In this document: positions 824 through 59,832 of the stretch, one piece after another
How positions within the stretch are numbered: the first letter of the stretch is position 1
Layout of the letters: each line of letters begins with the position of its first letter
Source: Clostridium sp.
Lineage (GTDB): Bacteria > Bacillota > Clostridia > Clostridiales > Clostridiaceae
Assembly (NCBI RefSeq): GCF_021372645.1
Contig: NZ_JAJFUC010000035.1
Location: forward strand, 1 to 64,000
Direction of reading: 5' to 3'
DNA length: 64,000 bases
The notes under the pieces: generated by a model
Told to the model about the DNA's origin: nothing
What the model saw: only the letters and a program-made list of their open reading frames with translations
Database searches by the model: none
Position numbers and translations under genes: made by a program

Positions 824-1140
824 ATAAAGTGATTCTTAGCTTCAGATGGAGTTCTCGTAATAGGAATACAATTCTCCACCTGAAGTTTAGAAGAACTTAT
901 CCAGGAGCGTGCAGCCGTTATCTCCCAATTAAGCAGAGAACCTAAAAGTGAGAGTCTGAATCTTGCATTCGGGTGCTCGAACTTTCATACTGTGCATCTA
1001 TGATTTAGTGTGAATTGGTTAAGCAGACATCTCAAGTCTATGATTTGATGATGGTCGCTTACTCTGTGAGTACTTCTATGACTTTAGGACGAGGAGTTTC
1101 ATATATAGAGTAGTGTTACGGAGGCTAGCTATCGGATAAA
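824..1140 (-). repeat. Structured repeat module A, copy 1 (candidate ncRNA)
   Basis: This non-coding stretch matches, in reverse complement, 49742-49957. Long blocks are nearly identical (for example AGAACTTATCCAGGAGCGTG on the plus strand here), while the middle carries about 100 bp absent from the other copy. A stem pairs 840-851 with 874-885 (CTTCAGATGGAG with CTCCACCTGAAG). Its one mismatch becomes a G-U pair if the minus strand is transcribed, so I assign that strand. No reading frame spans it. Conserved blocks around a variable middle suggest a structured RNA or a mobile non-coding element; I do not recognise the family. Confidence 0.6.
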
Positions 1141-1159: not shown

Positions 1160-1215
1160 AAGTGCAACTTTTCAGGTGGAGTCCTATACTTCACCTGAAT
1201 TTAGTTGAGCAGACA
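1160..1215 (+). repeat. CAGGTGGAG hairpin of repeat family B, without its module
   Basis: TTCAGGTGGAGT (1171-1182) pairs with ACTTCACCTGAA (1188-1199) with one G-U pair. It is followed by ATTTAGTTGA, the same sequence that follows the hairpin in the copies at 24700 and 49958. The downstream module, which begins TTATACCCTCAAGG in those copies, is missing here. The upstream ATAAAGTGCAACTTT is also shared with the other copies. Confidence 0.5.
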
Positions 1216-24686: not shown

Positions 24687-24699
24687 AATTATAATATAA

Positions 24700-24860
24700 A
24701 GTGAAATTTTTAAGGCGGAATTTTATATTTCAACTGAATTTAGTTGAACTTATACCCTCAAGGGGCTTAGTCTAGGGCAGTGCGATTCTTAGCACTCATT
24801 TAAAGAGATGGAGAATTAGAACCGCTAGATATCAGACTAGGTACTACTTGAGGGTATAAA
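24700..24860 (+). ncRNA. Repeat family B, complete copy (candidate structured RNA)
   Basis: A degenerate hairpin (24705-24737) with the following TGAATTTAGTTGAAC leads into a module closed by a perfect 13-bp stem: TTATACCCTCAAG (24750-24762) with CTTGAGGGTATAA (24847-24859). Inside are TAGTCT/AGACTA and the hairpin AGTGC/GCACT, with TAAAGAGATGG unpaired between. Diverged copies lie at 46850-46990 (minus strand) and 49958-50065, sharing the flanks and, in the first, TAAAGAGATGG. No frame spans it. It ends 40 nt before the transglutaminase-like gene, so it could be its leader. I do not recognise the family. Confidence 0.6.
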
Positions 24861-41263: not shown

Positions 41264-41284
41264 TTTGAATGGTTCATACAAAAG

Positions 41285-41354
41285 ACTCGTATATTTCCGA
41301 TGTTATGGTTGGAAAGTTTCTACCTGCTATCCGTAAATTAGTAGACTACGAGGT
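41285..41354 (+). ncRNA. Guanine/xanthine (purine) riboswitch
   Basis: A purine riboswitch aptamer: P1 is ACTCGTA with TACGAGGT, the conserved core TATGGTTGG-AAGTTTCTACC lies between, and GACTAC precedes the 3' arm. The ligand-pairing base is C (GACTAC), which marks guanine/xanthine sensing, where adenine riboswitches have U. It lies just upstream of a terminator and a purine permease plus xpt, the usual targets. With guanine bound, the terminator at 41401 should form and the operon is shut off. Confidence 0.9.
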
Positions 41355-41400
41355 AGTGTTTTAATGTTAAGTATTATTTTTAATATATTTATCTACAAAT

Positions 41401-46506: not shown

Positions 46507-46849
46507 TTTAAGTATACTCCGTATTAATATTGCTTAAGGGTATTATATTCTATTTTAAAAAGTTCTCCACAACTTTGAGATGTTAGTAAATTATAAGAGT
46601 ACTTATGCGAAGAATGAAACTATAGTAAAATGACTATATCAACAATTAAGTCCACCAAAATATATTTAATCTTTTTTTAAACTAAATATTTTTAAGAAGA
46701 AAAATACTTTTAAATTTATATATTTTACAATATAAATATATAAATATGTAAAAAGAAAACTATATAAATATATAACTATATAACTATTTATAGGAAACAT
46801 CAGGGTTACAGAGAATTTATAATTAATATTCACTATACTAGAAAAAATT

Positions 46850-46990
46850 TTATTCGATAACTAACTGCTACTGATACACCATCTCTTTAGGTTTGGATAA
46901 GTGACAGTTAGCTAATGGATATTAATACCTTGAGATTTATAGGTTCAACCAAAATTCAGATGTGGACCCAACCCCCAACTGAATTAAGTT
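46850..46990 (-). repeat. Repeat family B, copy on the minus strand
   Basis: Read on the minus strand the order matches the copy at 24700: a CCAACTGAATT/AATTCAG-type hairpin, GGTTGAAC, CTCAAGG, then TAAAGAGATGG (46879-46889 reversed). The inner stem of 24700 is replaced by CTAACTG (46861-46867) with CAGTTAG (46905-46911), a different sequence that still pairs. The closing 13-bp stem is not kept. The rest of 46507-47039 has only very AT-rich DNA, with TATAAATATATAACTATA-type runs near 46760. Confidence 0.5.
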
Positions 46991-47039
46991 TCATTTGATT
47001 TTAAAAATTAAGAATCATATTATGATTAAACTAAAATAG

Positions 47040-49405: not shown

Positions 49406-49552
49406 AATGTGTAGCTACCAATGCTTTATTATGGATTAGATAGAAAAACGAGAATAAATAAAGCTAGAGAGCTTTCACAATTAGTAGAAATGGAAGATAG
49501 ATTGACTCATCTACCCAATGAATTATCAGGTGGAGAATTGTATTCATATTAA
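49406..49552 (+). pseudogene. Fragment of a MacB/LolD-type ABC transporter ATPase
   Basis: The frame reads NV-stop-LPMLYYGLDRKTRINKA, then VEMEDRLTHLPNELSGGE before a stop. This is the Q-loop to signature-motif region of a MacB-type ATPase (NVELPLLYAG...DRLTHLPNELSGGQ). It carries an in-frame TAG, has no Walker A or B, and is cut exactly at LSGG, where repeat A sequence takes over. It is clearly inactive. Confidence 0.72.
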
Positions 49553-49595
49553 GAAAATTCTCACTAAAACTAAAAATCACTTTATAAAGTAAAGT
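49526..49595 (+). repeat. Module A, 3'-end fragment
   Basis: From CAGGTGGAGAATTG onward this stretch matches the 3' end of module A at 49898-49957 (GGTGGAAAATTGTATT...AATCACTTTAT). The junction lies inside the LSGG codons of the broken ABC gene, at CAGGTGGA shared by both. ATAAAGTAAAGTTGC follows, similar to the leader of the hairpin at 1160. Confidence 0.5.
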
Positions 49596-49741
49596 TGCAA
49601 AAAAATGAAAAGATATACCTCAATAGAATTATAATATTATTATGAAATTTTTTTTAAATTTGAAATAATATATTTATATATTTATAATTTTAATGTATAA
49701 TTTAATTGTTTGAGTTTTTTTGTAAAACTTTTTAGGCGGAG

Positions 49742-49957
49742 TTTTATCCGATAGCTATCATCCGTAACACTCCTATATATAGAAACTCCTCTTCCTAAAA
49801 TTTGAGGAGTAAGCGATTCACACTAAATCATAGATTTAGGTTCTCTGCTTAAGTTGGAGATAACGGCTGCACGCTCCTGGATAAGTTCTTCTAAGCTTCA
49901 GGTGGAAAATTGTATTATTATTAAGAGAACTCTATCTGAAATTAAGAATCACTTTAT
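49742..49957 (+). ncRNA. Structured repeat module A, copy 2 (candidate ncRNA)
   Basis: A 216-bp non-coding element beginning TTTTATCCGATAGC and ending AATCACTTTAT, nearly identical in blocks to the reverse complement of 824-1140. Pairing arms include AAACTCCTC with GAGGAGTAAGCG-side sequence (GGAGT/ACTCC) and GCTTCAGGTGGA with TCTATCTGAAAT, the latter using G-U pairs and so pointing to transcription of this strand. It sits in the loop position of a CAGGTGGAG-type hairpin (GGCGGAGTTTTA before, TACTCCGGCTGAG after). It lies 140 nt upstream of prs. Confidence 0.6.
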
Positions 49958-50065
49958 ACTCCGGCTGAGCTTAGTTTAACTTGTACCCTCAAGGGGGAGC
50001 TTATCTAGAGTCGTTCAGTTCTAACATCACCATCTAAAGTGGAAGTGTTATAACCAATAGACATG
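49958..50065 (+). repeat. Repeat family B, partial copy upstream of prs
   Basis: GAGCTTAGTTTAACTTGTAC and then CCCTCAAGGGG match the hairpin tail and opening arm of the complete copy at 24700. Beyond about 50000 the match decays (TTATCTAG, TTCTAACATCACC) and the closing arm CTTGAGGG is missing. It ends about 30 nt before the prs ribosome binding site. Confidence 0.5.
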
Positions 50066-50095
50066 TGATAAAATAATTGAAAAAGGGGAAAACAA

Positions 50096-59454: not shown

Positions 59455-59611
59455 TATATAAAGGAAAACAGTGAAATTGAATTTATATGAAATCAAATTG
59501 AGAATAAAGTTCATGAGCTTAATTAAAATATTTAAATTGATTTTCGTGGTAAATAATATTATGGTATAGTAGAATAATATGAATAAAAAATAAAATTTAA
59601 TAATAAAATAT

Positions 59612-59792
59612 GGGTTTAATCAATTGGTATGTAATTTATATATTTAGAAGTGATTAATTAAAAGGGAAGCAGGTGAGATTCCTGAACTATCCCGTAGCTG
59701 TATTAGAGGAGTTTAAGTACATTGTGTGTCACTTGGAAACAGGGAAGGCGTACTTAAATAATGATTCTTAAGTCAGAAGACCTGCCTGTATT
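59612..59792 (+). ncRNA. Cobalamin riboswitch
   Basis: The conserved blocks are in order: AAAGGGAAGCAGGTGAGATT and CCTGAACTATCCCG (5' core), GCTGTATTAGAGGAG, then CACTTGGAAACAGGGAAGGC (B12 box region), a stem TTTAAGTAC/GTACTTAAA, and AAGTCAGAAGACCTGCCT at the 3' side. This is the standard cobalamin aptamer. Downstream lies a fragmentary cobalt transport gene set, which it would have controlled. A sigma-A-like box pair TTGATT-TATGGT lies about 60-90 nt upstream. The expression platform is not clear. Confidence 0.93.
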
Positions 59793-59832
59793 TTGCACTG
59801 ACAACTCTACGAGTGATGGAGGGGGCGTTTTA

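What the first reader, a model, noticed from the sequence alone, without database searches (positions are those of the whole stretch)
824..1140. A large structured non-coding module with two distant, opposite-strand copies (module A)
824-1140 and 49742-49957 share long identical blocks across about 216 bp, yet neither codes for protein. Copy 1 carries about 100 extra bp in the middle. Stems pair in both copies, using G-U pairs only if the minus strand (copy 1) or plus strand (copy 2) is transcribed, which points to RNA. The copies lie in unrelated contexts (between small genes; upstream of prs). I do not recognise a known RNA.
Basis: partly seen in the sequence, partly recalled or inferred. 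Interest (0 to 1): 0.75.

Follow-up and report, generated by a model that had tools for sequence, protein, structure and literature searches.

The report
Jumping hairpin DNA of clostridia
The two look-alike stretches are copies of a small gene-less mobile DNA element that folds into hairpins and inserts itself right after the letters TTTAT in many clostridial genomes; they look like mobile DNA rather than a new RNA, and the enzyme that moves the element was not found.

Summary
The repeat is real, but it behaves as mobile DNA rather than as an RNA gene. Both window copies belong to a dispersed element family (at least 38 BLAST matches in this genome). A covariance model of its left end matches in 29 of 68 genomes of the genus and 14 of 196 of the class. 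Rfam gives no match at its thresholds. The base element is about 125-145 bp: a structured left hairpin plus a right hairpin. Both window copies also carry a separate hairpin repeat (R1) in the left-end loop; copy 1's extra ~100 bp is a second R1-like module with a nested hairpin. Two empty sites (G008 against G098) and two insertions in comM show insertion immediately 3' of TTTAT without target duplication. Helices covary strongly (161 two-sided cells against 36.6 shuffled), but G-T pairs (44) do not exceed A-C mismatches (60), against 36:3 in a riboswitch control, which argues against RNA-level selection on the copies. It resembles an ends-only IS200/IS605 element, but no autonomous partner was found in the loci scanned, so membership is not claimed.

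The parts
824..1135 (-). Copy 1, element body (CCGATAG...CACTTTAT), with two R1-like hairpin modules nested in the left-end loop
1136..1140 (-). TTTAT target pentanucleotide of copy 1
   Evidence: family rule
1101..1140 (-). Copy 1, 5' arm of the left-end hairpin E5 (target TTTAT included)
   Evidence: cut by inserts, so the model scores it weakly (12.4 bits)
1019..1100 (-). Copy 1, first R1-like nested hairpin module
929..1018 (-). Copy 1, second R1-like module with a further hairpin (948-982) inside it: the extra ~100 bp
896..928 (-). Copy 1, 3' arm of E5 ending GGATAAG
824..895 (-). Copy 1, right-end hairpin E3 (TTCTTCTAA...AATCACTTTAT)
49743..49747 (+). TTTAT target of copy 2, inside the hairpin loop of an older antisense element
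   Evidence: the loop GGAG-TTTTAT-ACTC stands without insert in L076 and L080
49748..49957 (+). Copy 2, element body: E5 5' arm to 49781, R1 49782-49852, E5 3' arm 49853-49885, E3 49886-49957
49722..50072 (-). Older antisense element interrupted by copy 2; its E5 is 50000-50072
   Evidence: (31.7 bits)
24692..24843 (-). Divergent element of the family, without R1; E5 at 24767-24840
   Evidence: (63.2 bits)
46849..47000 (+). Degenerate element of the family
   Evidence: (28.1 bits)
49526..49585 (+). Solo right-end hairpin (E3)
   Evidence: 83% to the right end of copy 2
1160..1209 (-). Solo right-end hairpin (E3, other type) next to copy 1
   Evidence: 1153-1208 is 82% identical to 24692-24747

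Best explanation
The module is a non-autonomous, hairpin-ended mobile DNA element of Clostridia. Shown: a body of about 125-145 bp (CYGAT...CACTTTAT or ...CACTTGAT) has inserted immediately 3' of TTTAT without duplicating the target. Its left end folds into a covarying four-helix hairpin (E5), its right end into another (E3, read but not tested for covariation). Copies are dispersed, sometimes nested and sometimes head-to-tail, and some insertions are recent enough to differ between close relatives. Both window copies carry other dispersed hairpin repeats (R1) nested in the E5 loop. Inferred: it moves as single-stranded DNA, cut and rejoined at TTTAT by a trans-acting HUH (Y1, TnpA-like) transposase that reads the two hairpins. 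The ATAA next to the right hairpin would pair with TTTAT at both cleavage sites, as target-reading sequences do in IS608. No role as an RNA in its present places is needed.
For: Empty sites in G008 for two G098 copies, each TTTAT followed by the right flank. Two insertions in the comM coding sequence of G027 whose two sides read on as ComM (pieces named; not aligned to an intact ComM). Copy 2 sits in the loop of an older element whose loop is uninterrupted in L076, L080 and L090. TTTAT in 74 of 81 distinct sites; last five bases TTTAT 33 or TTGAT 32 of the 67 with a right end found by my pattern (both figures lean towards the rule, since the model includes TTTAT and the pattern admits few other endings). 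Tandem units of 107 and about 118 bp sharing one TTTAT. Covariation in all four E5 helices. G-T not above A-C (44:60 in A3, 18:23 in A2) against 36:3 in the riboswitch control. Three copies whose left end is now a perfect palindrome (L008, L216; L473), as expected if the DNA strand itself folds. Group A IStrons insert after TTGAT, ATTAT or TTTAT (passages of PMC4227781). Two Y1-type genes have an E5 close by: the G027 RAYT (L159) and a Y1 fragment in G071 (L122, 31 bits, E 2e-6).
Against: No transposase gene with these ends was found. Of 93 Y1/RAYT stretches scanned with the model (51, 42; some overlap) only L159 and L122 have an E5 at E below 0.01. Six element-bearing genomes gave no Y1_Tnp match (G033, G050, G008; G099, G103, G043). 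Left and right hairpins differ in sequence, whereas one TnpA usually reads two similar ones (recalled; but PMC7290912 reports IS605 copies whose two hairpins differ drastically, passage). Orientation runs 48 to 25, with 8 unclear, against the leading-strand sense, opposite to what I would expect from IS608 (recalled). RAYT presence does not track the element (8 of 16 against 21 of 52). Insertion sites are not enriched for hairpin loops.
Confidence: 0.62

Rival explanations
1. A family of structured non-coding RNAs (trans-acting or leader RNAs) copied around the genome.
For: Strong covariation; conserved internal-loop letters; copies lie between divergent genes (13) more often than between convergent ones (3 of 83).
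Against: G-T pairs do not exceed A-C mismatches, unlike the riboswitch control. Flanking genes were both antisense to the element in 41 of 83 and both sense in 23 (simple ORF caller). Copies inserted in comM, empty sites in a close relative, no Rfam match at threshold (best sub-threshold match in copy 2 is mir-302_2, 23.7 of 70 bits).
Confidence: 0.08
2. A mobile element moved by something other than a HUH transposase: a reverse-transcribed RNA, a rolling-circle (IS91/Helitron-like) enzyme, or an integrase acting on folded DNA as on attC sites.
For: Six element-bearing genomes without a Y1_Tnp match; dissimilar end hairpins; orientation bias opposite to the IS608 expectation; head-to-tail arrays.
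Against: Fixed TTTAT target, no duplication and an intrinsic TTTAT/TTGAT right end match IS200/IS605 behaviour. Enzymes of these other kinds were not searched for.
Confidence: 0.25
3. A REP/BIME-like repeat mobilised by a RAYT (TnpA-REP) protein.
For: A RAYT-like gene fused to comM in G027 lies beside two intact copies; a Y1 fragment of G071 lies about 75 bp from an E5 match (L122); RAYT-like Y1 genes of about 250-312 aa occur in several distant hosts.
Against: I saw no GT[AG]G-foot hairpin of the canonical REP type (PMC6006769, passages) at the ends read, though I ran no scan for it; RAYT matches of 65 bits or more do not track the element (8 of 16 against 21 of 52 genomes); 29 of the 30 loci have no E5 nearby.
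Confidence: 0.12

Closest known systems
Ends-only IS200/IS605 elements (PATE-like)
   Same: Short, no ORF, hairpins at both ends, insertion 3' of a fixed short sequence without target duplication; PATE-like sequences described in PMC7290912 (passages)
   Different: No parental IS with the same ends found in the loci scanned; left and right hairpins unlike each other; up to tens of copies per genome over many genera
Group A IStrons and ISDra2-type IS605
   Same: Same kind of target pentanucleotide (TTGAT, ATTAT or TTTAT; PMC4227781 passages)
   Different: No group I intron (no Rfam match), no tnpA/tnpB, 3' end TTTAT/TTGAT instead of TCAG
REP/REPIN sequences with RAYT
   Same: Dispersed, hairpin-forming, non-autonomous
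   Different: No canonical GT[AG]G foot seen, not two inverted copies of one hairpin, no consistent RAYT gene
Classical MITEs
   Same: Short dispersed gene-less elements
   Different: No terminal inverted repeats, no target duplication
Stem-loop families of C. perfringens and C. tetani (Clop-1, Clot-1; PMC2267715)
   Same: Short dispersed stem-loop families in clostridia (table passages)

Membership tests
IS200/IS605 ends-only element (PATE/MITE) | Insertion 3' of a fixed tetra/pentanucleotide, no target duplication | tested here: met
IS200/IS605 ends-only element (PATE/MITE) | Subterminal hairpins at both ends | tested here: met
   left-end covariation; right-end hairpin read (no covariation count made for it)
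IS200/IS605 ends-only element (PATE/MITE) | Ends shared with an autonomous element carrying tnpA | tested here: not met
   93 Y1/RAYT stretches scanned with the model and BLAST of 31 Y1 stretches: no gene bounded by these ends; only fetched stretches were scanned
IS200/IS605 ends-only element (PATE/MITE) | Insertion bias to the lagging-strand template | tested here: inconclusive
   48 against 25 (p 0.0095), in the sense opposite to my expectation; sample not random, relatedness not corrected
IS200/IS605 ends-only element (PATE/MITE) | Cut and pasted by TnpA as single strands | not testable with these tools
   needs biochemistry
REP/REPIN of a RAYT | rayt gene in the genome flanked by the repeats | tested here: not met
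   8 of 16 RAYT genomes (65 bits or more) against 21 of 52 others carry the element; of the 30 loci only L159 has it nearby
Structured non-coding RNA family (Rfam) | Match to a known family | tested here: not met
   at gathering scores; only sub-threshold matches (best E 0.025); none at E 0.1
Structured non-coding RNA family (Rfam) | RNA-type pair tolerance (G-U well above A-C) | tested here: not met
   44:60 against riboswitch 36:3
Classical MITE | Terminal inverted repeats and target duplication | tested here: not met
   ends read
Group A IStron | Group I intron core | tested here: not met
   no Rfam match to an intron
Integron attC cassette | attC recombination by IntI | not tested
   no integrase search made

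The most novel reading that the evidence does not exclude
An old, class-wide family of gene-less elements with a shared ATAA guide between two unlike hairpins, moved by an enzyme not yet recognised (not a Y1 HUH transposase), since hosts with many copies and no Y1 match exist.
Probability: 0.27. Interest if true: 0.75.

Novelty: new variant of a known kind. Interest (0 to 1): 0.5.

Why it matters
If right, tens of copies of a mobile family that I found in no paper sit between genes of solvent-producing and other clostridia, and some break genes (comM in G027). In a covariation-based RNA screen the family could pass for a new RNA class; few G-T pairs beside strong covariation is a simple sign that the folded molecule is DNA. 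Finding its mobiliser would either extend IS200/IS605 biology or reveal another way to move folded single-stranded DNA.

Tried and rejected
Known RNA: the window at Rfam's thresholds gives only two riboswitches elsewhere; the copies give only sub-threshold matches (RefA5, E 1.6; six, best mir-302_2, E 0.025); four relatives give none at E 0.1.

Phages and plasmids: no BLAST match of window 49600-50080. Twelve viral contigs with the 17-letter left-end pattern were all rejected by the model at E 0.01.

Hairpin-loop targeting: copy 1 folds with TTTAT in a loop and copy 2 lies in the loop of an older element (read), but this is not general. 11 of 67 rebuilt sites have TTTAT in a loop against 89 of 603 control TTTAT sites, and site flanks are less structured than controls (mean energy -1.6 against -2.7).

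Y1/RAYT partner; no transposase gene bounded by the element's ends. The P3 loop resembles the left hairpin of an IS605 copy in the same genome (L069; 26 bp to copy L008, E 1.5e-6), but the model gives 14.2 bits (E 0.43). A 26-bp match of L068's copy in L414 (E 6e-6) was not followed up.

RNAalifold on the first 17-sequence alignment found only 9 pairs, I think because loops and right ends misalign; the left end was then aligned alone and a structure named by me.

Rows dropped and limits: two opposite-strand hits of palindromic copies (L008 +, L216 +) were dropped before but are among the rows; 83 copies collapsed to 81 distinct sites, 14 of them without a right end found by my pattern. The copies come from best-scoring lists, not a random draw. 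In one search, 2 of 30 riboswitch loci were left out as shortened; their structure came from RNAalifold, the element's from me, so the two are not treated identically, and cells are not independent. Alignments differ in rows: L009 is in A1 but not A2; L068 and two L116 copies are only in A2. Counts are lower bounds (40, 8, 71 and 24 candidates scored per genome). A3 is fitted to the model's structure; A2 (MAFFT) gives the same picture.

Literature: searches listed no paper that I recognised as describing this element; they cover only the held open-access library. Seen: passages of PMC4227781, PMC6006769, PMC7290912, PMC2267715; abstract start of PMC5934647 in the listing.

Full report
What is there. 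The two window copies align at 92% over 123 bp and 75% over about 120 bp. They are two of many: BLAST with copy 2 gives 38 matches in the window's own genome (40 of 69 candidates scored) and matches in 27 of 98 relatives (8 candidates scored per genome). Reading the matches side by side shows a base element of about 125-145 bp after the five letters TTTAT. Its left part (E5) is TTTATCCGATAGCTAGCATCCGTAACACTCCCACT-loop-AGTGGGAGATAACGGCTGCACGCTCCTGGATAAG. Its right part (E3) is a hairpin ending CACTTTAT or CACTTGAT. Many copies have only a short loop in E5. Others, including both window copies, carry a ~70-nt hairpin repeat (R1) in that loop. R1 also occurs alone, including in two genomes where the E5 model finds nothing (G046, G049), so I take it as a separate dispersed repeat. 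Some copies carry an optional module (such as CATTGTGCCCCTTGTGGGTA) between E5 and E3; it leaves ATAAG next to E3.

Structure. On a MAFFT alignment of 19 left ends, a four-helix structure that I named pairs 84.5% of cells, with 43 two-sided changes against 13.2 in shuffles and 3-11 when the helices are slid. On 84 distinct model-aligned rows there are 161 against 36.6. Examples for one helix: GCAUCCG/CGGCUGC, GCCGUUC/GAACGGC, GCCGCUG/CAGCGGC. So pairing is real. It does not look RNA-like: G-T cells number 44 and A-C cells 60 (18 and 23 in the smaller alignment), while 28 purine riboswitches of the same genus, aligned with MAFFT and folded with RNAalifold, give 36 and 3 (Fisher p 2e-8, cells not independent). 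Departures from the commonest pair that keep a pair are mostly two-sided Watson-Crick changes (160 cells) rather than G-T (44). Three copies have left ends that are now perfect palindromes (L008, L216; L473), the mark of one arm copied from the other when a DNA strand folds. I infer that pairing is selected in active source copies as DNA, and that inserted copies then decay.

Mobility. G098 carries two copies whose sites in the close relative G008 are empty (the three matched pieces around them are 95, 96 and 87% identical): CATACATATTTAT|TTTTATTAATT and TTTTTCTTTAT|ACCTTATATAC; in G098 the element body stands at the bar. One of the two bodies ends in TTGAT although its left neighbour is TTTAT, so the right end belongs to the element and there is no target duplication. 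In G027 two copies interrupt comM, and the reading goes on beyond each insert as ComM sequence. Upstream of prs, 30 orthologous regions were compared by BLAST: 25 have no match to the element; L076, L080 and L090 have only an older antisense element; the window's genome has copy 2 inserted in the loop of that older element (GGAG-TTTTAT-ACTC); and G029 (L074) has a reduced insert at the same place. Over 81 distinct sites the left five letters are TTTAT in 74 (the model that found them includes these letters), and the outer flanks show no strong preference except A as the first right base (44 of 67). Tandem arrays share one TTTAT per junction (107-bp units in C. brassicae L303, about 118 bp in C. 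chromiireducens L311), as expected if the TTTAT at one right end is the target of the next insertion.

Range. The E5 model matches in 29 of 68 genomes of the genus, up to 60 matches in one, and in 14 of 196 genomes drawn from the class, in 11 of 131 genera; G108 holds identical left ends at different places (L455-L457). Named hosts confirmed by the model include C. uliginosum, C. intestinale, C. magnum, C. brassicae, C. chromiireducens, C. cibarium, C. saudiense and, at 46.7 bits, Tissierella simiarum (19 of the 38 genome loci given had a match); C. beijerinckii HUN142 and C. puniceum show the 17-letter pattern. None of 12 viral contigs with the pattern passed the model.

How it probably works. 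Insertion 3' of a fixed T-rich pentanucleotide without duplication, with hairpins at both ends, is how IS200/IS605 elements behave; group A IStrons go in after TTGAT, ATTAT or TTTAT (PMC4227781, passages), and IS608 reads its target by base pairing (abstract start of PMC5934647). Here the ATAA between E5 and E3 can pair with the left TTTAT (helix 1) and with the right end; I take it as a shared guide. This is inference.

What speaks against. No transposase gene was found bounded by these ends: of 93 Y1/RAYT stretches (some overlapping) only the G027 RAYT locus (E about 1e-24) and a Y1 fragment in G071 (L122, E 2e-6) have an E5 close by. Six element-bearing genomes gave no Y1 match. RAYT matches of 65 bits or more do not track the element (8 of 16 against 21 of 52 genomes). 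The orientation bias (48 against 25, 8 unclear, relative to local GC skew; flanking genes both antisense 41, both sense 23 of 83) is opposite to what I would expect for IS608. Insertion into hairpin loops, true for both window copies, is not general. So the mobiliser is open, and I do not file the element as a member of IS200/IS605 or of REP/RAYT.

Verdict. Observation confirmed; the RNA reading is not supported; a widespread, non-autonomous mobile DNA family that I found in no paper, working like an ends-only IS200/IS605 element but with unknown mobiliser.

Noticed in passing
L116:1435-2133 (G027 C1 about 2167.8-2168.5 kb): A RAYT-like Y1 gene (NF047646 76.7 bits, cut-off 80) is fused in frame to the middle of comM (YifB), and the rest of comM carries two copies of the element.
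   Followed up: partly
L116:1-40 and 1164-1273: Another, GC-richer repeat (..GGGGAAAACAGAAATTACCAGGTACAAGTT) occurs twice within 1.3 kb; no Rfam match at E 0.1.
   Followed up: partly
G052:C2:1279916-1319318 (L040): Six R1-like 40-bp hairpins, each 93% identical to the query, lie within 40 kb; the one read (L040) stands between ORFs that I did not identify.
   Followed up: no
L033-L037, L014, L017, L020: R1 hairpin repeat on its own (GAAACTC..GAGTAAGCGATTCACAC..TCTCTGCTTA), also in tandem (L037) and next to a related hairpin (L035); its own target and mobiliser were not studied.
   Followed up: partly
L069:1363-1393: Left hairpin of an IS605 copy in the same genome (CTCCCACTTCTTATAAGTGGGAG) resembles the element's P3 hairpin.
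   Followed up: partly
window 41267-41368 and 59595-59803: Purine and cobalamin riboswitches, ordinary.
   Followed up: no
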